From contig JABTVA010000007.1 of assembly GCA_015075075.1 (NCBI GenBank), positions 1 through 64,000 of the forward strand: a DNA stretch of 64,000 bases. Direction: 5' to 3'. Numbering within the stretch: the first letter of the stretch is position 1; every line of letters starts with the position of its first letter. This DNA comes from Deltaproteobacteria bacterium. Its GTDB lineage: Bacteria; Desulfobacterota; GWC2-55-46. Below the pieces are notes generated by a model. That model ran no database searches. It had not been told where the DNA came from and saw nothing but the letters and a program-made list of their open reading frames with translations. Made by a program: the position numbers and the translations under genes. Positions 17,050-38,579 of the stretch are shown piece by piece.

Positions 17050-19491
17050 ATGGAGCGGGGGCTCTCCGAAATCCTCGAAGCGGTATTGAAGCCCCTGAGG
17101 TTCGCATCAAAGGACGACTTCCGGCACCTGGGGGCGCTTAAATCCCTCGAGCCGCTCGCCAACTCTCTCCTGAAGGAAGCCCTTTCCCTGAGAAACCCGC
17201 CGGGCGTAAACGCCGGGCTTGAAGAGCTCTTGCGTATCCTCTCCGGCTTTGATTCCCTCGGCGATTCGTCCAGGAAGGAGAAGGTGCTCGCCGCCCTCGA
17301 TCTAATAGGCTCGATAAGCGGGGAAGTAAGGGCGCGGGCCTTGCCCGCACCCACTCCGGTGCCTTATCTAAGCCCTGTCGAGGCCGAGAGAAGGCTTAAG
17401 GAGCTTAAGACCCCGCTCTCTTTCGTGAAGGGCATAGGGCCGAAGCTCGCGGAGAGGCTCTCGAAGAAGGGCCTTTCGACAGTCGAGGACCTGCTCTATT
17501 TTCTCCCGCTGCGATACGAGGACAGGAGCCGCCTTAAGCGGATACGCGAGCTCACGCCGGGCCTCAGCGAAAGCACCACGGGAGAGGTGCTTGCCATAGG
17601 AGAGGCGCGATATGGGAGAAGGCGCGTCCTCGAGATGGCCGTGGGGGACGGGAGCGACATACTCAAGGTCAAATGGTTCAACTTCGGCCCTCACATTAAA
17701 AAGAGGTTCAGGAACGGGCAGAAACTCATCGTCTTCGGGCAGGTCTCGGTATTCGGCGGCAGGAAGGAGATGGTGCACCCGGATATAGAGCTTGCCGAGG
17801 AGAATGACGAGGCCGGGGCCGCAGGTCCGGATGATTTCGGCAGGATAGTCCCCGTATATTCGCAGGTGGAAAACTTCCACCAGAAGACCATAAGGAAGAT
17901 CGTCCGGTCGGTTGTCGACGGCTACGGCGGCAAGACGGTGGCCGGGGTGCCTTTCGGCATCTCGGAGAGGCACGGGCTCATGGGCCTGGACCAGGCAATG
18001 AGGGAGGCACATCTTCCGTCCGGGGCCGGTACTGCGCTTCTCGCGAAAAAGAGCCTCGCGTTCGACGAGCTATTTCTCCTTGAGACCGGGCTGGCTTTAA
18101 GGAGGGCGGGCATAAAAAAGGAACGTGGCATATCGTTCAGGCCCGAGGGCAGGCTTGAGAGGAGCCTGCGGAATATACTCCCGTTCACGCTTACCGGCGC
18201 GCAGGAGAGGACGCTTTCTGAGATACGGAATGACATGGCCGCTCCGCACCCCATGAACAGGCTCATCCAGGGCGACGTGGGCTCGGGGAAGACGGTCGTG
18301 AGCCTCCTTGCCTCGCTCATGGCCGTTGAGTGCGGGTTCCAGGCGGCGATAATGGCCCCCACCGAAATACTCGCGGAGCAGCACTATCTCCTTACGAGGA
18401 AGTACGCCGAACCGCTGGGCCTTGAGCCCGTCCTCCTTACCGGAGCGCCAGGAAATCGGAAAGGAGGACGCTACGGTCAGTGAGTTATGGGCGGGCAGAC
18501 TTGGTCATAGTAATCTATGCGCCGATACAGAAGGACGGAGTTCAAAAAGCTGGGTTTGGCCGTCATAGACGAGCAGCACAGGTTTGGGGTCGTGCAAAGG
18601 GGGGTTCTGAAGAAGAAAGGCTTCGGCGCGGGCAAAGGGCTTTCGCCGGATATCCTCATAATGACCGCCACACCAATCCCGAGGACCCTCTCCATGACCG
18701 TATTCGGAGACTTGGACGTATCGATAATAGACGAACTGCCGCCAGGTCGAAAGCCGGTGCATACGAAGGTGCTCAGGGAAAAGGAGAGGCAGAAGGCCTA
18801 TGAGACCATCCAGAGAGAGCTTGCCTCTGGCGGCCAGGCCTATATCGTGTACCCGCTCGTCGAGGAATCGAAGGAACTTAGCCTCAGGGACGCTACCAAC
18901 ATGAGGGCGCACCTCGAAAAGGACGTTTTCAGGGACCGCCGGGTGGGCCTCCTCCACGGGAGAATGAAGGCCGACGAAAAAGAGGCGGTCATGAGGGACT
19001 TTAAGGAAAAGAAGATAGACATCCTCGTATCGACCACCGTAATAGAGGTGGGCGTTGACGTGCCTAACGCCTCGGTCATGCTCATAGAGCACGCCGAGAG
19101 GTTCGGCCTTGCCCAGCTCCACCAGCTCCGTGGAAGGGTGGGGAGGGGCGAGAGGAAGTCTTTCTGCCTTCTCATCGCCGGCTGGACCAACTCGGAGGAC
19201 ACATATAAACGCCTCAAGGTCATGGAGGAGACGAACGACGGGTTTAGTATCGCCGAAGAGGACCTCAAGATACGGGGGCCGGGTGATTTTCTCGGCACAA
19301 GGCAGGCGGGGCTGCCTGATTTCAGGACTGACGGCGCGCTTTCAGACCTTAAGCTCTTGAAGACCGCGAGGGAGGAGGCCAATAATTATTTGAAGACAAA
19401 CCCTGGACTCAAGGGCCCCGAAGGCGAAGTGATAAGAAGGGTGCTAAAGGCCAGGTGGCAGGACAGGCTCGAACTCGCGGAGATCGGGTAG
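17050..19491 (+). CDS. recG: ATP-dependent DNA helicase RecG, frameshifted
   Basis: Branch-migration helicase that reverses stalled forks and processes recombination intermediates. The first frame (17050-18483) holds an N-terminal extension, the wedge/OB domain (SFVKGIGPKLAERLSKKG, LPLRYEDRS), Walker A GDVGSGKT and MAPTEILAEQH. The second (18517-19491) holds DEQHRFGV (DEQH box), MTATPIPRTL, STTVIEVGVDVPNA and QLRGRVGRG. The frame is lost between about 18455 and 18545, where the sequence should encode the VIGTHALIQ motif. Several indels and substitutions there read as poor sequence. An intact protein would be about 810 residues. Confidence 0.92.
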
Positions 19492-21850: not shown

Positions 21851-22002
21851 AGCCCTTAATTTCATAGATACCGCGGCCACAGGGTCGGCAGGTGGACAAC
21901 CGGTACGCCTCCTGCTATAATCTGTCAGTTTTTACCCTTCACTTCTCCTCGACGAAATACTCCTCGGCATACACTTTCAAAAAAAGGCCTTACGGCTTCA
22001 AA

Positions 22003-24144
22003 ATGGGCATGAGGCTATCGCAAAAGCTCCTTTTGTGGATTATCTCTTTCATGGCCGCCGGCATGGGCCTCATGACGGTCTATGTCATTTTCCACAGCAG
22101 GACGCTAATAACCGACATGGGCATGACCGACGCGAAGCGAAGCGCCGGGATGGTATTCGAGGCCCTGTACGCCTCCATGAGCACCGGTGGAGGGCGGGAA
22201 GGTAACAGGGCCATCGTTGAGCGGCTCTCGCAGCTCCAGGACCTGGGAGGGGTCAGGGTGATACACGGCCCTTCGATAAACATGCAGTATGGCATCGAGG
22301 AGGACGAACTCCCTCGCGACGACCTGGACAGGGCCGCGCTCGCCGGGCTGGAGATAAGCCAGGTCGAGCGGGGACTTGACGGAGAAGGCGGCGTAAGGTT
22401 CGTAAAACCCGTATTTGCGGTTGAAGCATGCAAGAGGTGCCATTTCGTAGATGAAGGCGATGTGCTCGGGGCAATTTCCATAACGACATCGCTAAAGAGA
22501 TACGACCGGCAGCTTGCAGCCTCGGCAAGGCAGATCACGATCATGGGAATAGGCATATTGGCCGGGACCATTGCCCTGAGCGTGCTCTTTATCATGCGCG
22601 TGATCATCAGGCCGGTCCGGGAGTTCCAGGAAGCCGCCCGCGCCATTGGCGAAGGGGGGCTCGCATCCGTAATCAAACCGTCCAGCAGCCTTGAGATGAA
22701 CGTGCTCGCGGATGAGTTCAACAGGATGAACTCGTCCCTTAAGGCCATTTCGAGGGAGCTCGAAAAGAAGGTGGAGGAGAGGACCAGGGAGCTCGAGAGG
22801 GAGGTCGAGGTACGGAAGCGCTCGGAAGATGCGGTGAAGCACATGGCGTATCACGACGCCCTCACGGGGCTACCGAACCGCCTGGTGCTCATAGACCGCG
22901 TGAGCCAGGTCCTTGCAAGGGGGCGCTGGCATGGCCGTATTGCCGCGATCATCTACCTCGACCTGGACCGCTTCAAGGTGATAAACGACACGCTCGGACA
23001 CCATGCCGGGGACGAACTGCTGAAGGAAGTCGCCCTGAGGCTCGTGAAATGCGTAAGGTCCGGAGATACCGTGGTCCGGCAGGGCGGGGACGAGTTCATA
23101 ATGCTCCTGCAGGACATAAACAGGATTGAGGACATCACGACCGTGGTCCAGAAGGTCTTCTCGGCATTTGACTCGCATTTCATGCTCGCGGGACGCGAGT
23201 TCGGCATTACGGCCAGCCTGGGTATCAGCATCTACCCGGACGACGGCGAGGACGTGGAGACGCTCTTCAAGAACGCCGACATAGCCATGTACCAGGCAAA
23301 AGAGGAAGGCGGGAACAAGCACAAGTTCTACACCGCAGCGATGAACGAGAAGTTCCTTCAGAGGCTCGACTTTGAAAGGAGGATGCGGAGGGCGCTCGAA
23401 AATGACGAGTTCATCCTTTATTATCAGCCGGAAGTGGACATAGATACTGGCGAGGTCTCGGGGGTCGAGGCGCTCATCAGGTGGCGGGACCCTGAACTGG
23501 GGCTCCTTATGCCCGGCGATTTCATCCCGCTCGCCGAGGACACGGGGCTCATAATACCGATAGGGGAATGGGCGCTCCGCGCCGCCTGCGCGCAGAACAG
23601 GGAATGGCAGGAAAGGGGCTTGAGGCCCGTGATCATGGCCGTCAATCTCTCCATGCGCCAGTTCAGGGAGAACGACTTCATGGGCTCCCTTATGAGAGTA
23701 CTGGAAGAGACAGGCCTTGACCCGAAATGGCTTGAGCTCGAGCTTACGGAGAGCATCATAATGGACAACGCCGAGTCCGTCATAGGCACATTGAGAGAAC
23801 TCAAACTCAATGGGAGGCGCTTACTATCGACGATTTCGGAACAGGGTATTCCTCGCTCGAGTACCTGGAAGAGATGCCCATAAATAAGCTCAAGATCGCT
23901 CAGTCCTTCATAAAGGGCATCACACCGACCCGGACGATGTCAGCCATCGCGAATACCGTCATAAGCATAGGCCACAGCATGAAGATGGAGGTACTGGCCG
24001 AAGGGGTGAGACGGTTGAGCAGCTTTGCCCTGAGGACTCTCGCGCGATAAGGTGCAGGGTTTCCTGATGTCGAGGCCTGTCCTGGCAGGGGCCGAGTCTC
24101 TTCTCGGTAAAAGGGCCGAAAGGCCGCTCTGGTCAGGTGTTTAG
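22003..24144 (+). CDS. Membrane GGDEF-EAL protein with CxxCH sensor domain, frameshifted
   Basis: Cyclic-di-GMP turnover protein. Domain order from the ATG at 22003: membrane helix (7-29), periplasmic domain of about 145 residues containing CKRCH (143-147), a c-type-heme motif as in DUF3365/Tll0287-like sensors, second helix (177-199), HAMP, coiled coil, then GGDEF with an intact GGDEF signature (365-369) and inhibitory-site RSGD (356-359), and EAL with an intact EAL (493-495) and ELTESIIMDN. The main frame stops at 23883. The downstream DNA still encodes EAL residues (DDFGTGYSSLEYL, LAEGV, QGFLMSRP) in other frames to about 24144, with breaks near 23812 and 24005-24055. An upstream GTG at 21892 is possible. 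Confidence 0.85.
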
Positions 24145-25335
24145 GGTTTGCGGGCGCTTTTCGGGGACTTCGGCATCTTTTGCGCCGCCCAATATCCGTG
24201 AAGCTGCAGAAAAGACCTCTTCAACCCCTATTGAATCCATGCACGGCGCCTTTTTGCCGCACGGGAGGAGCTCCTCGTCGAGCACGTGCACGCACGGCGA
24301 GCAGATGAAGTCATTGTAAACCGGCTCCGCGCTGCCGCCTGCAGGAAGGAAGTGCCGGGGGTGCGTCGGCCCGAAGAGGGCTATCGTCGGGGTTTTCATG
24401 AGGACCGCTAAATGGAGCGGCCCGGAATCGTTTGTGATGAAAAGGGCGGCGTTCTTGAGATATCCCATCAGCTCCCGGAGGGTAAGCTTCCCGGCGAGGT
24501 TGACCACGGCATCCTTCCGCGGGTTTTCAAGCCTTTCGATAAAACCCTCAACGACCTGCCGCTCGCTCCGGGAACCTATGAAGCCGATCCTGTTCGGGTA
24601 TGCGTCGAGTAGCTTTAGAACGAGCGCCTTGAACTTTTCTTCCGGCCACCTCCGCGGCGCAAAAAGCTCTCCGGTATTTATGTTCACCAGGACCATGCCG
24701 TCCGCGTCCCTGCTGCCCTCTATCCGAAGGCCCTTGCACTCGCCCCCCCCCGATGAAGTTTTTTCAGGCAAGCCGACGGTCTCTGAAAACATCCTGAAAT
24801 AGAGCTCGCCCGCGTAGCGGAACCTGTTGAAGTAGACGAGGTGTGTGTGGAGGCGCTTCCTGAAGCGGGTGGTGTCGGATACGAACCCGGCCCGGTTCCT
24901 CGCGGCCGTAAGGAGGCAGAGGACCGATGAGAGCTTTGAGTAGGTCTCAAGGTCAAAGGTCCAGTTCGGGCGGAACCTCCATATTCGGATGAGGTTTTTT
25001 GCCAGGGAATAGAGGCTTGTTGCGAGCGTCCTGTCGTCGAGCTCAAGTATCTCGGAAAAAATCCCGAGTTCCCTCGCGAGCTGGTTCGTCTGGCCTGTGC
25101 CCCAGAAGATGAATTGAGAGCCGGGGTACGTCTCCTTGAGGGCCGCGAGCGCCGGATAAGCGCAGGCAAGCGACCCCATGCCGCTGAACTTCATGACCAC
25201 TGCCCTCTCGACGGGAATGTTCCTGTGGTCCCTCCTCAATATATTGCCCACGCAGAAAGCGAGCGCCTCGAAGGACATGGCGAGCGCAAAGCCCAGGTAG
25301 TGGTCTATCTTCCTTTTGAATTTGAGCGAAAGCAT
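24133..25335 (-). CDS. Glycosyltransferase family 9 (heptosyltransferase-like)
   Basis: A 400-residue GT-B enzyme of the ADP-heptose:LPS heptosyltransferase family, expected on the inner face of the membrane in LPS-core or cell-surface glycan synthesis. The signature FITNDSGPLHLAVLMKTPTIALFGPTHP is present in two parts around residues 310-340, and VVMKFSGMGSLACAYPALAAL matches the N-terminal family start. A cysteine cluster near the C-terminus (ICSPCVHV, LPCGKKAPCMD) is typical of many GT9 proteins. It lies directly downstream of two paralogous membrane proteins on the same strand (40-base gap). Its end overlaps the convergent GGDEF-EAL gene by about 12 bases. Sugar specificity is unknown. 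Confidence 0.85.
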   Translation of the reverse strand: MLSLKFKRKIDHYLGFALAMSFEALAFCVGNILRRDHRNIPVERAVVMKFSGMGSLACAYPALAALKETYPGSQFIFWGTGQTNQLARELGIFSEILELDDRTLATSLYSLAKNLIRIWRFRPNWTFDLETYSKLSSVLCLLTAARNRAGFVSDTTRFRKRLHTHLVYFNRFRYAGELYFRMFSETVGLPEKTSSGGGECKGLRIEGSRDADGMVLVNINTGELFAPRRWPEEKFKALVLKLLDAYPNRIGFIGSRSERQVVEGFIERLENPRKDAVVNLAGKLTLRELMGYLKNAALFITNDSGPLHLAVLMKTPTIALFGPTHPRHFLPAGGSAEPVYNDFICSPCVHVLDEELLPCGKKAPCMDSIGVEEVFSAASRILGGAKDAEVPEKRPQTLNT

Positions 25336-25374: not shown

Positions 25375-27447
25375 CTACTGAGGCCCTTTGAGAAGGTAGA
25401 GGTCTCCCAGCCCTGTACGTACCGGGTTTTCCATGTCGAACCTTTCCGAAGCCCATTCGTAATAGAGAGGGAGCCTGTCCCGGTCCGGTATATCATACCA
25501 TGAAAGGCCTGTATTTGACCTCAATATCGCTTTCACCCCGTTTCTTTCGAGTTCGGAGACCATTTCCCGCTGCATCTCCCCGGTAACGGCCAGGCCGATC
25601 TTGTAATATTTCGTCGGGAGCGGATATCCGAGCGCCGGGTATATGAGCGGGGCTGAATTGGTGACCAGCAGTTCTCCTTTATTTATGTTAAAGCGCCTCA
25701 GTTCCTCCTTGAGCCCGCAGACCGCGGCATCGAAATCACGGTAATCATTCCAACGGAGGTTATAACGCGAAAATATCGAATTGGAGCATTGCCAGGGCGT
25801 CGGCGCATGGAAACCGGCAAGGAGCCCGGTTGACGAACTGATAATCCTGCCCTTTGACAAGGAATGGTTGGCCCTGAAGCCTGCCGTCCGGAAATCGAAG
25901 AAAGCGAACAGCGCGATAACCGCGAGCACCTTGAAATACAGCTTGAGCCGTGATACGGCCACGACCCTCATGCAGAAAGCGGCGATGAATATATTCGTCA
26001 GGACGAAGGCGTCGAAGATGTGCGCGTAGTCGCTCCGCCCGAATGCCGTCTTGAGGAGGAGGATGGAAAAGAAAGAGAGCAGCACTGGAAATCTTTCGAT
26101 CTGGAAAGGATGCCGCAGGTTCTTAAGGAGATACCCGGCCAGTATCGCGGCGAAAGTAAGCGTTGTCAGAAGGAACGCGACGCCCGCCCACGCCCACGCC
26201 CCGGCAGGCCCCTGAGGGTATGCGATCGATTTAAGGAAGAGAGGGAAAGGCAACCCCCCTGTGTCCGAATGGTGCCTGGGAAGGACATACAGCGTTGTGG
26301 CGTACCATTCGCGCCCCGGCCAGCCCAGGAGAAGATACATCGTTATCGCTGCGGCGAGGAGGCCCGCGATATAGAGAGAGAACTCCTTGGCTACCCGGCG
26401 CAGGGCAGCGCGCTCGTATATGAGGGAGCCGACGGCCTGGAAGATGAATAACGCGGCGATTGCAGCCAGCACATAGACGCCGAATTCAATCCGGTAGACA
26501 TGTGCAATGAAAGTCAAGGCGCCGGCAGCGAAGAAATGAGACCCGAGCCTTGCCCTCGAGAACGCCACCAAGGCGATGGCGGCGAATAGGAAACTCGATA
26601 GCTGGACCAGGGCCGGCCGGAGCGAAAGCGTCAATACTAAATTCAGGACTATAATGACCGCCATGAGGAGGACCGAATAATAGCCGAGCCGCATCCCGTG
26701 GCAGATGAGCGCCAAGGCCAGGACGCCAAGACTCATTGAAAAGGCCTTGGCCAGCAGCATCGTCGGCACGTCCATCCTGGAAAAAATAAAAAAGAATAAG
26801 GCTGCAATGCCGGTGTCTTCAAGACCATGCGGCCACTGGGACGTTACGAACGGCTTTCCCCCGGAAAGGAGGTCGGCTGCGGTGGTGTACTGCTCTCCGA
26901 AATGATGCACATCAAGCGGGTGCTCGAACCAGTAGGGAAGAGAGAACATGAATATGAGCGACATCCCGGCAGCCGCGGCGGCCAGCATGATAACCGGGCT
27001 GGCCTTTTTGGGGGCCGGGCTGCTGATAGCGGACCTGAAGAAATAATAAAGAAACGAAAGGAGTATGAGGACGTTCGTGAGCTGAAATGCCAGGCCGTCG
27101 AGGTTTTCGAACTCGACGTGCCTCCGGGCTATGAGGAAGGCCACCGGCGCGAGAAGGAGCACGCTTGCGAGCTTGACAAGTCTCGACCTGAACGCCTCGA
27201 AAAAAATGGCCGCGACCCCAGAAGCCAGCACCGAGGCCGCAACGGCAGCATGCTCGACGTTCTTCGGGTATCCGTTGAACGACGGCCATCCCGGCGCAGA
27301 CCATTCCGGCTCCACCGTTTGGACGGAAATATAGGAGGCAATGACCCCGAGAGAGGCAACGCAGACGAGGAGGTGAGCCGTCGCGGCCATGTTTTCGGGT
27401 ATCTTCTTGAACTGCTCTCTTATGTGCATGCGAGTCGGGACGGACAC
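25375..27447 (-). CDS. Polytopic membrane protein, paralogue A (possible GT-C-like)
   Basis: A 690-residue inner-membrane protein I cannot assign to a named family. It has about 12-14 hydrophobic helices and a C-terminal soluble region of about 160 residues (from NSIFSRYNLRWNDYRDF) that should be periplasmic. A conserved polar loop near residue 175-210 reads EHPLDVHHFGEQ and QWPHGLEDTGIAALFF; the acidic/His cluster after a membrane helix resembles the layout of GT-C glycosyltransferases, but that is inference. It is a clear paralogue of the next gene upstream over its whole length and adjoins a GT9 gene. Start at 27447 (GTG) or 27429 (ATG). Confidence 0.65.
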   Translation of the reverse strand: MSVPTRMHIREQFKKIPENMAATAHLLVCVASLGVIASYISVQTVEPEWSAPGWPSFNGYPKNVEHAAVAASVLASGVAAIFFEAFRSRLVKLASVLLLAPVAFLIARRHVEFENLDGLAFQLTNVLILLSFLYYFFRSAISSPAPKKASPVIMLAAAAAGMSLIFMFSLPYWFEHPLDVHHFGEQYTTAADLLSGGKPFVTSQWPHGLEDTGIAALFFFIFSRMDVPTMLLAKAFSMSLGVLALALICHGMRLGYYSVLLMAVIIVLNLVLTLSLRPALVQLSSFLFAAIALVAFSRARLGSHFFAAGALTFIAHVYRIEFGVYVLAAIAALFIFQAVGSLIYERAALRRVAKEFSLYIAGLLAAAITMYLLLGWPGREWYATTLYVLPRHHSDTGGLPFPLFLKSIAYPQGPAGAWAWAGVAFLLTTLTFAAILAGYLLKNLRHPFQIERFPVLLSFFSILLLKTAFGRSDYAHIFDAFVLTNIFIAAFCMRVVAVSRLKLYFKVLAVIALFAFFDFRTAGFRANHSLSKGRIISSSTGLLAGFHAPTPWQCSNSIFSRYNLRWNDYRDFDAAVCGLKEELRRFNINKGELLVTNSAPLIYPALGYPLPTKYYKIGLAVTGEMQREMVSELERNGVKAILRSNTGLSWYDIPDRDRLPLYYEWASERFDMENPVRTGLGDLYLLKGPQ

Positions 27448-27535
27448 CGGCAGGATTGAAGCGCCCGGAAAAGGCCGTCCACTATCGAGATTATAATCAT
27501 GTCGGGTAACGGTTCTCTGCCCAGCGCATGCTTCC

Positions 27536-29605
27536 TTAAGGGCCGTGGTCGAATTGCTGGTTGAGGTCTCTCCGGAGATACAGGGCCCCGAGCCCGGTCC
27601 TTACCGGATTATCCATGTCGAACCTTTCCCTGGCCCATTTGAAATGTACCGGCAGCCTGTCCCAATCCGGGATGTCGTACCACGTGAGGCCGACGTTCGA
27701 CCGGAGGAGCGCCTTGACGCCGTTCCTTTCAAGCTCGGATACCATTTCCTCCTGCATCTCTTCTGTTATTGCGAGACCTATCTTGTAATATTTCGTCGGA
27801 AGTCCATAGCCCAGGGCCGGGTATATGAGGGCGGCGGAATGCATTACCAGCAGCTCCTTCTCATTTATCCCGTAACGCGAAAGTTCCTCTTTCAGCCCGC
27901 ATATGAACCTGTCGAAGGCCTGGTAATCCGGCCTGGCCAGGTTCTGGGCCGAGAATATCGAATTCGAGCATTGCGCCGGAGGAGGCTCGTTATATCCGGA
28001 CAGGTATTCGTATGAGCCCTTGAAAAGGGCCGGGTGCGGCAATAAAGGCTTGTCCGCGAATGAGAGGCGGACCGATTCGAAATTGAAAAATGAGAAAAGG
28101 AGGCCTACTAACAGGATTTTAGCCGGCGCTTTGAGGGGCGACGCTATCAAGACCCTTGAACATGCGAGCACAAGGAGGAACGCAGGGATAAGGAACGCGT
28201 GGTGTATATGGCTGAAGTCGCTCCTTCCGAAGGCGGTCTTGAGCATGAATACCGAAAAAAAGACCAAAAGCACCGGGAACTTGTCTATTTTCCCGGCCTG
28301 CCTGAGATTCCTCATGAGGTATCCGGTTATGATCGCGACCATGGTCAAAATCGTGATTAGGAGCGTTATCCCGGTCCATTCCTTGGGATATCCCTGTCCC
28401 ACGGAATATACATGCGCAATCGATTTGATGAACAGCGGGAACGCCAGGCCGCCGGTATCCGCGTGGTATCTGGGAAGGATGTAAAATACGGTCTTGTACC
28501 ATTCGGGCCCCGGCCAGCCCAGGACAAGGTACATAAAAAACGCGGCTCCCGCAGTTCCGAAAAGATAAAGCGCGGCCTCTCTTGCGGTGCCGCGAAGCCG
28601 CGCGCGGTCGTAAATCAGGGCGCCTGCCGCCTGATACAATAAGAGCGCAATTATCGAGACAAACGCGTATACGCCCAGCTCTATCCGGTAGACGTGGGCT
28701 ATGAAGGTAAGCAGCCCGGCCAGGAAGAACTGATAGCCGCGTGCCGCCCTTGAAAACGCGAGCAGCGCAATGAGGGCGAAGATATAGCTCGTGAGATAGC
28801 CGAAGCCCAGGGCGTAATTAAAGACCGCGACGGCTGCCAGAACGAGGACGGAATAATAGTCGAGCCGCATGCCGTAGCAAAGGAGTAGGATTGTTATCGC
28901 TCCGAGGCCTGTTGCGAAAGCCAGCGAGAGGAGCATGGTAGGCACATCGGTCCGGGAGAACAAGGTAAAAAAGAGCGCGGCAATGCCGGTGTCTTCAAGA
29001 CCGTGCGGCCAATGGAATGTAATGAAAGGCCTGCCGCCGGCGAGCAGGTCGGCAGCTGATGTGAACTGCTCGCCGAAGTGATGCACATCCAGCGGATACT
29101 CGAACCAGTATACGACCGAAAGCATGAAAAAGACCGAGAACCCGGCAATCCCGGCGGCGATGATAACAAGTGGATTGGCTTTTCGCGGTGCCGGAACGGC
29201 ATCGGCCGATTTGAAAAAATAGAAGAGAGAGCTGAGTAGAACGGCGATGTACACGAGTTGTATGGAGCCGCTCATCCCGGAGATATCGACGTTCTTGTAG
29301 ACTATGACGGCCGCAACCGGGACAAGGACGGCCAGGCTTGCGATCTTAATGAGCCTGGCCCTGAACGCCTCGAAAAATAGAGCCGTGAGCGCGGCCCCGA
29401 TTATCGAGGCCATGAGGGCAGCGTTCTCGATATTTTTCGGATACTTGTTAAAGGAGGGCCATCCCGGAGTAGACCAGGCCGGACTTACGGACTGAACGCA
29501 GATATAGGATACGATAACGCCTACAGAGACAACGCAGAGCGCAAGGTGTATCGTCTCAGTCAGGTTTCCAAGAAGCTCCTTTAACGGAATCCTGAACGAT
29601 CTCAT
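27536..29605 (-). CDS. Polytopic membrane protein, paralogue B (possible GT-C-like)
   Basis: A 689-residue paralogue of the preceding protein, collinear from the N-terminal loop (PGWPSFNKYPKNIENAA) through EYPLDVHHFGEQ and HWPHGLEDTGIAALFF to the C-terminal block LIYPALGYGLPTKYYKIGLA and YDIPDWDRLP. By eye more than half of residues match, so this is an old but recognisable tandem duplication. Same strand and about 90 bases apart, so probably one transcription unit ending in the GT9 gene. Function unknown; a lipid-linked sugar transferase or polysaccharide-processing role is a guess from fold-like features and neighbours. Confidence 0.65.
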   Translation of the reverse strand: MRSFRIPLKELLGNLTETIHLALCVVSVGVIVSYICVQSVSPAWSTPGWPSFNKYPKNIENAALMASIIGAALTALFFEAFRARLIKIASLAVLVPVAAVIVYKNVDISGMSGSIQLVYIAVLLSSLFYFFKSADAVPAPRKANPLVIIAAGIAGFSVFFMLSVVYWFEYPLDVHHFGEQFTSAADLLAGGRPFITFHWPHGLEDTGIAALFFTLFSRTDVPTMLLSLAFATGLGAITILLLCYGMRLDYYSVLVLAAVAVFNYALGFGYLTSYIFALIALLAFSRAARGYQFFLAGLLTFIAHVYRIELGVYAFVSIIALLLYQAAGALIYDRARLRGTAREAALYLFGTAGAAFFMYLVLGWPGPEWYKTVFYILPRYHADTGGLAFPLFIKSIAHVYSVGQGYPKEWTGITLLITILTMVAIITGYLMRNLRQAGKIDKFPVLLVFFSVFMLKTAFGRSDFSHIHHAFLIPAFLLVLACSRVLIASPLKAPAKILLVGLLFSFFNFESVRLSFADKPLLPHPALFKGSYEYLSGYNEPPPAQCSNSIFSAQNLARPDYQAFDRFICGLKEELSRYGINEKELLVMHSAALIYPALGYGLPTKYYKIGLAITEEMQEEMVSELERNGVKALLRSNVGLTWYDIPDWDRLPVHFKWARERFDMDNPVRTGLGALYLRRDLNQQFDHGP

Positions 29606-29704: not shown

Positions 29705-30187
29705 TTAAGCACATCCCCTCCCTTTTTTCATAACCTTTTCCACAAGGGCCCTAAGTTTCCCGTCCTTTATGGGGCCGGCCGTCTTTTCTATGAAGGACTC
29801 GTCTTCCGGGGTGAGGGGGATTTGCGGGGAAGGGGGCGCGTTGGCCGGCCTGCGGCTTTTCACCGTTCCGGTCCTGAAGACGACGTCGGTTATGGTGCCG
29901 GGGCCGAGCGCCCCGTTAAGCCGTGCGACGATGGAGGCCTTCTGGTAATTGAGCTCGGTCATCCACGGCGAGCTTTCGACAGAGCAGAAGAGGACCGTCC
30001 CTATGAGCCTCTCGGGGCAGGTCCTTCGCGAGATGGCCTCTCCCACGCACCCGGGCCAGAGCTTTTTCGCCCTGTACTCCAGGAGCTTGGCCCCGAGGTT
30101 CAGGTGGCCCAGCGTCGAGCCGAGGACCGAGCTTATCGATGTAGGCGAGCTGCGGGAACCCCGGCGTTCCTTTCCCCTGCCGGACAT
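29705..30187 (-). CDS. DUF721 (DciA-like) protein
   Basis: A 160-residue protein with a DUF721 core, LWPGCVGEAISRRTCPERLIG followed by SVESSPWMTELNYQK (split here; about residues 43-80). DUF721 includes DciA, the replicative-helicase operator of bacteria that lack DnaC or DnaI, so a role in loading DnaB is plausible. A basic, serine-rich N-terminus (MSGRGKERRGSRSS) and a C-terminal helical tail flank the domain. It starts one base after the stop of the small membrane protein gene, so the two are coupled. Confidence 0.75.
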   Translation of the reverse strand: MSGRGKERRGSRSSPTSISSVLGSTLGHLNLGAKLLEYRAKKLWPGCVGEAISRRTCPERLIGTVLFCSVESSPWMTELNYQKASIVARLNGALGPGTITDVVFRTGTVKSRRPANAPPSPQIPLTPEDESFIEKTAGPIKDGKLRALVEKVMKKGRGCA

Positions 30188-35893: not shown

Positions 35894-38579
35894 ATGCAGG
35901 CAAAGAAGACCAGGCTGGTAATAATCGGGCTCATCGGCTTACTCGTAATCCTGTCGCTCTCGCTCCTTAACATCTATACCGAGTGGCTCTTCTTCAAGAG
36001 ACGGGATACACCGGGATATTCACGAAGACGCTCTCCACCAAGATAGCCCTCGGCGCGGCCTTCAGGCTTTTCTTCCTCGTCTTTGCGACGGTCAATACGA
36101 TAATAGCGAACAGGGCGAGCTTCAGGCCCGTTAAGCTCCACCTCGTCGACAACCTCGCGCTCCAGGTGCAGGGCCTCGAAAGCATCGTGAGGACTGCTGC
36201 CCTTGCCGCAGGGGCCGTCTTCGCCTTTTTCGCGGCGCAGTGGGGGGCGCTGAGGTGGGAGGAGCTGCTTATCTTCATGAACTCCGTCCGCATGGACCTG
36301 GCGGACCCGATACTCGGCGAAGACATTGGTTTTTACCTTTTCAGGCTCCCGTTCATAGAGTCGCTCAAGGGGTTTGCCGGGTTCACGCTCGTCATGACCT
36401 CCCTTATCGTGGGTGCGAACTATTTCCTGAGGGGCGGCCTCGTCCTCTCCAACGCGGGCTTCTATATCGACAGGCAGGTGAGGGCGCATTTCGGGGTCCT
36501 CGGCGGCCTCTTCCTGCTGCTCGCCGCCTTCGGCTTCTACATAGACACCTTCAACCTCCTCCTTACGAAGAACGGCGCCGTATTCGGCGGCGGCTATACC
36601 GACGTGAATACGCGGCTACTCTTCTACAGGATACTCATGGCGGTCACCCCCATAGCCGCGGTCGTGTTCGGAGTTTCCATGCTCCGGGGCGCGTTGAAGG
36701 CGGCCCTGGTCTCGGCGGGCGTGGTCGGCGTCGTCTATTTCGGCGGGCTCGTGCTCTATCCCGGGTTCGTCCAGAAGTTCAAGGTAGAGCCGAACGAGCT
36801 TGTGCTCGAAACACCCTATATAGAGCACAACATAAAGTTCACCCGCATGGGCTATGACCTGGACAGCATTGATGTGATACCGTTCGACGTCGGCTACAAT
36901 CTGACGTCCGGGAACATAGAGGCGAACGATGCGACCATCAAGAACATAAGGCTGTGGGACCACGTCCCGCTCCTTCGGACCTACAGCCAGCTCCAGCAGA
37001 TAAGGACTTACTACAAGTTCGCCGACGTGGACAACGACAGGTACACGATAAACGGCGAGTACATGCAGGTAATGCTCTCGCCGAGGGAGCTCTCCTACGC
37101 TGACCTCCCGAGCAGGTCCTGGATAAACGAGAAGCTCACGTTCACGCACGGCTACGGCCTGGCCTCGGGCCCGTAAGCAGGATAACGCGCGAGGGCCTCC
37201 CGGAGCTTATGGTCCGTGACATACCGCCGGTGAGCTACGGCAATCTCGCTGTAAAGAGGCCGGAGATCTACTACGGGGAGCTCTCGAGCGACTACGTTGT
37301 CGTCAATACAGAAGTCCAGGAGTTCAGCTATCCAACTACCGAAGGGAACGTCTACACGTCCTACGAGGGAGGGGGCGGCGTAAGGCTCGACTCGCTCTTG
37401 AAGAGGGCGCTCTTCGCGCTCAGGTTCAAGACCGAGAAGATACTCCTTTCCTCGGACATAAAGCCGGAAAGCAGGATACTCTACTACAGGAACGCGCTCG
37501 AAAGGGTAAGGACGATCGCGCCTTTCCTCATATTCGACAAGGACCCGTACCTCGTCATCTCCGATTCCGGCAGGCTCGTGTGGATGGTGGACGCGTACAC
37601 CACTTCAAGCAGGTTCCCGTACTCTACGCCCATAGACGGGAGGACGAATTATATAAGGAACTCGGTGAAGGCCGTGGTAGACGCGTACGACGGCACGGTG
37701 AAGTTCTACGTGAGCGACCCCGCTGACCCGGTCCTCAGGGTCTTCTCCGGGATATTCGAGGGCGTATTCGAGCCGCTCGAAGCAATGCCCGACGACCTTG
37801 AGAGGCACATCAGGTATCCGCAGGGGCTCCTGAGCGTGCAGGCCGCCATCTATTCCTCGTACCACATGACCGACCCGCAGGTCTTCTACAACAAGGAGAA
37901 CCTCTGGGAGATACCGGTCTTCTCCGAAAGGACGATGGAGCCCTATTACACCATAATGAAGCTCCCCGGGGAGGACAAGGAGGAATACATACTGCTCCTC
38001 CCGTACACCCCTGCAAAGAGGGACAACCTCGCGGCCTGGCTCGCGGCCAGGTGCGACGTGCCCAACTACGGGAAGCTCGTTGTCTACACCTTCCCGAGGG
38101 ACAGGCTCATATACGGGCCCAAGCAGATAGACGCTCGGATAAACCAGGACTCGTACATCTCGCAGCAGCTGACGCTTTGGGGGCAGAGGGGCTCGCAGGT
38201 CATAAGGGGGAGCCTCCTCGTCATCCCGAGAGAGAATTCGCTCCTTTACGTCCAGCCGCTGTATCTCGCGGCGGTCGACAAGGCCGGGCTTCCGGAGCTC
38301 CGGAGGGTCATAGTCGCCTACGAGAACGAGGTCGTGATGGAGGAGAACCTCGAGCTTGCGCTCGAGCGCCTCTTCGGCGGCAGGAAGGCCGCCAGGGCGC
38401 GCCCCGCCGGGACCGCCGCTCCGGTTGCCAAGCCGGACGAGACCAAAAACACGGAGTTGGCCAGGGAGGCGATGCGCACCTTCGAGCGGGCGCTCGATAA
38501 GCAGAGGAGGGGCGACTGGGCCGGGTACGGCGAGGAGCTTGAAAGACTGGAAGGGATATTAAAGAGGATAGCGAGATAG
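35894..38579 (+). CDS. UPF0182 family membrane protein, frameshifted
   Basis: A large membrane protein of unknown function, about 894 residues if repaired, the usual UPF0182 size. The true start is ATG 35894 (AAGGGAAGGT upstream), encoding helix VIIGLIGLLVILSLSLLNIY and TEWLFFKE. One base is off near 35998. The second frame (to about 37165) gives six more helices and the conserved YIEHNIKFTRMGYDLD. Another base is lost near 37160, and the third frame carries PEIYYGELSSDYVVVNT, FPYSTPIDGRTNYIRNSVK and GPKQIDARINQDSYISQQL. Conserved blocks run through both breaks, so sequencing error is likely. Three bases before cysQ it ends in a helical tail. Confidence 0.9.

What the first reader, a model, noticed from the sequence alone, without database searches (positions are those of the whole stretch)
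25375..29605. Tandem paralogous ~690-residue membrane proteins of no known family next to a GT9 enzyme
Two collinear proteins share the loop DVHHFGEQ, the motif WPHGLEDTGIAALFF and a periplasmic C-terminal block with PTKYYKIGLA and YDIPD. Helix count plus a C-terminal soluble domain resembles GT-C glycosyltransferases, yet no standard motif is obvious. The duplication and the adjacent GT9 gene suggest a surface-glycan system not covered by standard annotations.
Basis: partly seen in the sequence, partly recalled or inferred. Interest (0 to 1): 0.5.

Follow-up and report, generated by a model that had tools for sequence, protein, structure and literature searches.

The report
Divergent membrane glycosyltransferases with altered site
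Two neighbouring membrane proteins that no family database recognises look like distant relatives of sugar-transferring enzymes of the bacterial cell surface, but with a histidine where the textbook enzymes have a key acidic residue, and they travel with a second sugar-transferring enzyme that also seems to have lost its usual key acidic residue.

Summary
In detail: two tandem minus-strand genes (window 25375-27447, 27536-29605; 690 and 689 aa, 57% identical) share every motif quoted, have no Pfam or NCBIfam family, and precede a GT9 gene (24133-25335). The GT-C guess is supported. Profile links run from this family through unannotated relatives to PMT_2 (PF13231) enzymes (direct link weak; reversed controls negative). 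A 30-sequence AlphaFold2 model (pLDDT 85.4, pTM 0.89) matches GT-C structures: VIA-align rows 1-48 are GT-C fold (Z 17.0-6.8), the next 4.2; Foldseek TM-scores are low. Two features are unusual. (1) The catalytic-Asp column is Asp in 18, His in 11 and Glu in 1 of 30 chosen rows; both window proteins have His, coupled to His201 and Asp173. (2) The GT9 partner has Ser where heptosyltransferases have Asp13. A GT9 of at least 53% identity occurs in exactly the four genomes (of 59) that hold this GT-C. GT9 and such GT-Cs share a cluster in six genomes, three with a methyltransferase. Best reading: periplasmic, polyprenyl-phosphate-sugar-dependent GT-C enzymes of an envelope-glycan module, duplicated here. 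Activity is inferred, not shown. New variant of a known kind.

The parts
27536..29605 (-). GT-C-like membrane protein P0002 (689 aa); four extra N-terminal helices, GT-C core from about residue 141, C-terminal soluble domain
25375..27447 (-). paralogue P0001 (690 aa), 57% identical
24133..25335 (-). GT9 family protein P0003 (400 aa); Ser55 at the position of HepI Asp13
29069..29089 (-). P0002 first-outer-loop motif D173-V-H-H176-F-G-E179; H176 sits in the GT-C catalytic-Asp column
26893..26913 (-). same motif in P0001 (residues 179-185)
28208..28228 (-). P0002 GRSDxxH motif (460-466); H466 conserved in 30 of 30 aligned relatives
26020..26040 (-). same motif in P0001 (GRSDYAH)
25171..25173 (-). 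GT9 Ser55 codon (GMGS, where HepI reads SMGD13)

Best explanation
P0001 and P0002 are divergent GT-CA-fold glycosyltransferases of the PMT_2/ArnT type. Shown by computation: the homology chain, a predicted GT-C core, and a conserved gene cluster with a GT9. Inferred: they sit in the inner membrane with the active site facing the periplasm, take a monosaccharide from a polyprenyl-phosphate carrier, with H466 helping to hold the phosphate, and transfer it to an envelope glycan (LPS core or another lipid-linked glycan) whose cytoplasmic steps involve the adjacent GT9 and, in relatives, a methyltransferase. The usual catalytic Asp of the first outer loop is His here (H176), with D173 three residues upstream, so the base is either the His or D173. 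The tandem pair would be two enzymes for related acceptors or linkages. The tree suggests that the duplication is older than the split from G002, which keeps one copy.
For: Profile of the 5 family members finds P0004 (E 7.0e-6, columns 353-502) and P0005 (E 5.7e-5, columns 418-512). With these two added it finds L024 (E 1.5e-11) and, over the C-terminal domain only (columns 578-681), L025-L028 (E 2.4e-6 to 7.0e-6); of these L026 and L028 were scanned and carry PMT_2 (2.7e-11, 1.9e-14). hhalign: family vs P0004/P0005 group 99.8%, E 1.2e-28; that group vs eight PMT_2-type proteins 98.3%, E 2.5e-14; all reversed-alignment controls at most 0.6%. AF2 on 30 rows: pLDDT 85.4, pTM 0.89. Foldseek: all 6 PDB matches with E<=0.001 are GT-C enzymes. 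VIA-align: of 50 entries shown, rows 1-48 are GT-C fold by their titles (four of them GPI-transamidase subunits; two translocon chains taken by me as the OST catalytic subunit), Z 17.0-6.8, row 49 Z 4.2. A model helix runs 176-188, as PimE D58 lies at the tip of JM1 (PMC12041525, passages). GT9s of 53% identity or more in exactly the same 4 of 59 genomes as the GT-C. GT9-methyltransferase-GT-C order in L003, L019 and L017. LpxB in the genome, and 12 matches to a GT2 query from beside a PMT_2 gene.
Against: Direct comparison of this family with the PMT_2-type proteins alone is weak (55.4%, E 1.2e-4). Profiles A1, A5 and A6 find no GT-C chain by sequence in the PDB. The family-only alignment (5 rows) gave a poor model (pLDDT 47.9), so the good model leans on my choice of rows. 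Foldseek TM-scores are low (0.30-0.39 for the top six). The expected Asp is absent in both GT-C proteins, and the GT9 partner seems to lack its Asp too, so activity cannot be taken for granted. No donor, acceptor or activity is known.
Confidence: 0.7

Rival explanations
1. Catalytically dead GT-C-fold proteins that serve as scaffold or lipid/sugar-binding subunits, as PIGU does in the GPI transamidase; the GT9 partner would be a non-enzyme too.
For: Catalytic-Asp column reads His in the GT-C and HepI Asp13 aligns with Ser in the GT9. Four GPI-transamidase rows match at Z 10.4-11.2. In PimE, D58A and D58N abolish activity (PMC12041525); HepI D13A falls 4688-fold (PMC5713226).
Against: The substituted site is itself conserved: D173 and H201 in 11 of 11 His rows, and H466 in 30 of 30, though several of the 11 are close relatives. 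A dead site would be expected to drift. DPY19 shows that the base can change (Glu71; PMC10154233).
Confidence: 0.2
2. A membrane transporter, flippase or O-antigen polymerase/ligase rather than a GT-C of the lipid-phosphate type.
For: Many helices and no database family.
Against: Among the 50 entries shown, no chain without the GT-C fold exceeds Z 4.2; the C-terminal domain and first outer loop align with PMT_2 proteins.
Confidence: 0.04
3. A version of the best explanation (not exclusive of it): a GT-C transferase that uses D173 as base, so the His is a minor local shift and the chemistry is ordinary.
For: D173 is present in 11 of 11 His rows; PimE has acidic residues at the same spacing (D55 and D58; PMC12041525); L093 reads DEFHEGE.
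Against: Spacing to the invariant Gly190 puts His, not D173, in the Asp column: 14 residues in 30 of 30 rows. In PimE the residue three upstream (D55) is dispensable.
Confidence: 0.4

Closest known systems
PMT_2 (PF13231) bacterial GT-C proteins
   Same: position of the first-outer-loop motif, Gly 14 residues later, conserved loop His, C-terminal soluble domain
   Different: window proteins not recognised by PF13231; Asp to His and Lys to His in the first outer loop; four extra N-terminal helices; GRSDxxH where most PMT_2-type rows read FRxHY
ArnT (GT83, PDB 5F15/5EZM)
   Same: best Foldseek hit (5F15, E 9.6e-5); VIA Z 13.9 and 13.0
   Different: ArnT has D55/E56 (PMC7801869); no sequence match found
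Protein O-mannosyltransferases Pmt1-Pmt2 and Pmt4 (GT39)
   Same: top three VIA rows, Z 17.0-16.4 over 337-343 residues
   Different: Pmt1 has D77/E78 (PMC7801869); eukaryotic; no sequence match
PimE mannosyltransferase (PDB 9DM5)
   Same: fold match Z 11.1; D58 at the tip of JM1 and H322 at the phosphate are plausible counterparts of H176 and H466
   Different: Asp base; mycobacterial glycolipid; the counterpart assignment is my inference
LPS heptosyltransferases (GT9; HepI, HepII)
   Same: P0003 carries PF01075 and aligns with 3TOV, 1PSW and 2GT1
   Different: Ser55 at HepI Asp13; scores far below the HepI-III equivalog cut-offs

Membership tests
GT-C (GT-CA) fold superfamily | GT-C structural core (in a predicted model) | tested here: met
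   VIA rows 1-48 of 50 shown are GT-C fold, Z 17.0-6.8
GT-C (GT-CA) fold superfamily | catalytic Asp/Glu in first outer loop | tested here: not met
   column 176 is His in P0001/P0002 and in 11 of 30 rows; D173 nearby could serve
GT-C (GT-CA) fold superfamily | glycosyl transfer from a lipid-phosphate sugar | not testable with these tools
   needs an assay
Pfam PMT_2 (PF13231) | score over the gathering threshold | tested here: not met
   no match for P0001/P0002; 15 of 30 A5 members match at E<=0.01
ArnT / GT83 | sequence similarity detectable by HMMER | tested here: not met
   no ArnT chain among PDB sequences (at E<=10, 80 at E<=1)
CAZy GT families 22, 39, 50, 53, 57, 66, 136 | sequence similarity to a founding member | not tested
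   CAZy models are not held; only PDB sequences were searched
GT9 (P0003) | PF01075 over threshold | tested here: met
   99.1 bits against 22
LPS heptosyltransferase I/II/III (P0003) | NCBIfam equivalog cut-off | tested here: not met
   II 75.6 of 134.6, III 54.4 of 170.2, I 50 of 185.3 bits
LPS heptosyltransferase I/II/III (P0003) | catalytic Asp13 | tested here: not met
   Ser55 aligned with HepI Asp13; that stretch of the alignment alone is weak (2.8 bits)

The most novel reading that the evidence does not exclude
A conserved glycan module in which both glycosyltransferases have traded their textbook catalytic Asp: a GT-C with a His-based (possibly metal-binding: D173, H176, E179, H201, H466) site, or Glu in a related lineage (P0005 and its G034 relative), paired with a Ser-type GT9. 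It would add a His-dependent catalytic class to the GT-C superfamily.
Probability: 0.27. Interest if true: 0.7.

Novelty: new variant of a known kind. Interest (0 to 1): 0.48.

Why it matters
GT-C enzymes build LPS decorations, glycoproteins and mycobacterial walls, and the acidic residue in their first outer loop is treated as indispensable: one paper (PMC7801869, passages) says that every homologue in its search had that aspartate, and DPY19 has Glu there (PMC10154233, passages). A clade with a conserved His at that place is a natural test of how far the rule holds. It escapes Pfam and NCBIfam, so such proteins would be annotated as hypothetical. The linked Ser-type GT9 gives a second such test in the same cluster.

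Tried and rejected
Transporter, polymerase or unknown fold: rejected on the fold search. Mobile or phage origin: no tblastn match in phages or plasmids for P0002, and none in plasmids for P0004 or P0005. The viral-contig scan with A2 gave 77 pattern hits and no relative. Sequence search of the PDB gave only chance-level matches for P0001, A5 and A6 and none for A1 or the L101 protein. A first AF2 job with only the 5 family rows was poor and its model was not searched. In one search the PMT_2 group by mistake held 5 other ORFs from the same loci beside 9 intended rows; I repeated it with eight intended rows and rely on that (family vs PMT_2 group: 72.5%, E 4e-6; 55.4%, E 1.2e-4). Promoter/terminator scan: counts within about 1.5 sd of shuffles, not used. 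A radical SAM gene lies beside the trio in L017 and was not pursued.

Papers: only passages or search listings were seen, no whole text. Passages: PMC11127046, PMC12041525, PMC7801869, PMC10154233, PMC10920833, PMC5713226. I found no report of a His in the GT-C catalytic-Asp position or of this gene module in searches; these saw at most listings, and most subscription papers are not held.

Not done: no coordinates of the model are available here, so distances among D173, H176, H201 and H466 were not measured. Other phyla were not searched beyond the single scan. CAZy models are not held. The window's species was not identified.
Full report
Observation. The two proteins, their motifs, the 57% identity and the GT9 neighbour are all as described. 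They are on the minus strand in the order P0002 (27536-29605), P0001 (25375-27447), GT9 (24133-25335), with gaps of 88 and 39 bp. A DciA gene lies upstream on the same strand (29705-30187). By eye the flanks are mostly housekeeping genes, not a glycan cluster.

Distribution. P0002 relatives occur in 4 of 97 genomes searched, the window's own included (G000 with two copies, G002, G007, G038), and 4 of 48 of the order. One locus was found in the named genome collection (JADFVP010000006.1, L003, which holds the same genes as G038). In the phylum sample the 5-row profile found 4 of 395 genomes, one of them (G381) only by a distant relative. No match in phages or plasmids, and no relative in viral contigs.

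What family. No Pfam or NCBIfam model applies. The family profile A1 found two distant relatives: P0004 in the window's own genome (E 7.0e-6, columns 353-502) and P0005 in G381 (E 5.7e-5, columns 418-512). The seven-row profile A2 then found L024 (E 1.5e-11) and, over the C-terminal domain only, L025 to L028 (E 2.4e-6 to 7.0e-6). L026 and L028 carry PMT_2 over its threshold; L024 reaches 19.9 of 26.1 bits; L025 and L027 were not scanned in that call. Group-against-group hhalign: family vs P0004/P0005 group 99.8%, E 1.2e-28; that group vs eight PMT_2-type proteins 98.3%, E 2.5e-14; family vs the PMT_2-type proteins directly 55.4%, E 1.2e-4; reversed alignments 0.1 to 0.6%. So the link to PMT_2 is transitive and only weakly direct.

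Fold. With 5 rows AF2 failed (pLDDT 47.9). With 30 rows (A5) it gave pLDDT 85.4 and pTM 0.89. I chose the rows from the hits; others (for instance L047, L048, L094, L097, L100, L102) were left out. Foldseek: six PDB matches with E<=0.001 (ArnT, three AglB entries, AftA, yeast OST), all GT-C, but TM-scores of only 0.30 to 0.39. VIA-align: of 50 entries shown the first 48 are GT-C fold by title, including four GPI-transamidase subunits and two translocon chains that I take to be the OST catalytic subunit, Z 17.0 to 6.8; the next is an Rh protein at 4.2. The matched part begins near residue 141, so four N-terminal helices are extra.

Active-site columns. In A5, position 176 is Asp in 18, His in 11 and Glu in 1 of 30 rows; Gly190 and His466 are in 30 of 30. 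The distance from 176 to Gly190 is 14 residues in 30 of 30 rows. Separate profile alignments put HEGE opposite DEGE without a gap (the local alignment begins at that pair) and the window's HFGE opposite HEGE. His176 goes with His201 and Asp173 in 11 of 11 His rows and in 0 of 19 others, though 15 of those 19 have a gap at 173. PMC7801869 (passages) aligns this Asp with ArnT D55 and Pmt1 D77 and says that every homologue in its search has it. In PimE, D58 at the tip of JM1 is the proposed base and D58A/N abolish activity, while H322 binds the donor phosphate (PMC12041525, passages). In the model a helix runs 176-188. Equating H466 with PimE H322 is my inference. DPY19 uses Glu at this place (PMC10154233, passages), so the base can vary. 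A tree built without the first-outer-loop columns needs two changes between His and non-His; one origin is not ruled out, and long branches make it unsure. The 11 His rows come from eight genomes: G000, G002, G003, G005, G007, G038, G151, G426.

Partners. A GT9 search with P0003 matched 6 of 59 genomes at E<=1e-30: four at 53% identity or more (G000, G002, G007, G038; 52-53% for the last two by BLASTP), exactly the four of those 59 that hold the GT-C, and two at 29% (G034, G028). Relatedness of the genomes makes a probability meaningless. GT9, methyltransferase and GT-C are consecutive or overlapping in L003 (G038), L019 (G007) and L017 (G381). G000 and G002 show no such methyltransferase in the cluster. 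In G034 the GT9 lies between two GT-Cs, one of P0005 type with Glu at the base position (EQGE). P0003 aligns Ser55 with HepI Asp13 (a weak local stretch). GS is read in the six GT9s clustered with such GT-Cs (G000, G002, G007, G038, G381, G034), while the one other GT9 examined, L108, reads GD. HepI D13 is the proposed base, present in all heptosyltransferases compared there, and D13A falls 4688-fold (PMC5713226, passages).

P0004-type paralogues have another partner: a PRK07208-type flavoprotein gene, distantly like UDP-galactopyranose mutase, overlaps or abuts them in L034, L035, L036 and L067. The first three were identified with NCBIfam, L067's by eye. None is seen beside P0004 in the window's genome (15-kb stretch) nor in L037.

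Mechanism. Most likely a periplasm-facing transferase taking a sugar from a polyprenyl-phosphate carrier, as GT39, GT53, GT57 and GT83 do (table in PMC10920833), with an unusual base, acting on an envelope glycan. The genome has LpxB and 12 matches to a GT2 query that I take to be DPM1-like, so acceptor lipid and donor class are plausible. Which sugar and acceptor is unknown. The tree puts P0002 with G002's single copy (91/84) and P0001 outside, suggesting an older duplication and a loss in G002, with moderate support.

Verdict. New here is the conserved His in the catalytic-Asp column and its pairing with a Ser-type GT9. Whether these proteins are active is open.

Noticed in passing
window 17050-18483 and 18517-19491: recG (named by eye) is in two ORFs here but one 815-aa ORF in G002 (L018:14297-16744); a frameshift or assembly error in the window.
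   Followed up: partly
window 35983-37176 and 37209-38579: What looks like a UPF0182-type protein (recalled, not scanned) is split into two ORFs, again suggesting an indel.
   Followed up: no
window 21892-23883: A GGDEF/EAL-like protein (by eye) ends in an out-of-frame-looking tail; only 279 bases separate the GT9 and the next gene at that place in G002 (L018:11703-11982), so it is absent there.
   Followed up: no
L036 (G002:C1:1586625-1587176): The P0004-type GT-C of G002 is cut to a 202-aa ORF, apparently decayed.
   Followed up: no
L034, L035, L036, L067: P0004-type GT-Cs overlap or abut a PRK07208-type flavoprotein gene distantly like UDP-galactopyranose mutase; possibly a furanose-transfer pair.
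   Followed up: partly
L118 (G034): GS-type GT9 flanked by two GT-Cs; the convergent one is 734 aa with EQGE and GRSDGFH motifs, like P0005.
   Followed up: partly
L017 (G381): A B12-binding radical SAM gene directly precedes the GT9-methyltransferase-GT-C trio.
   Followed up: no
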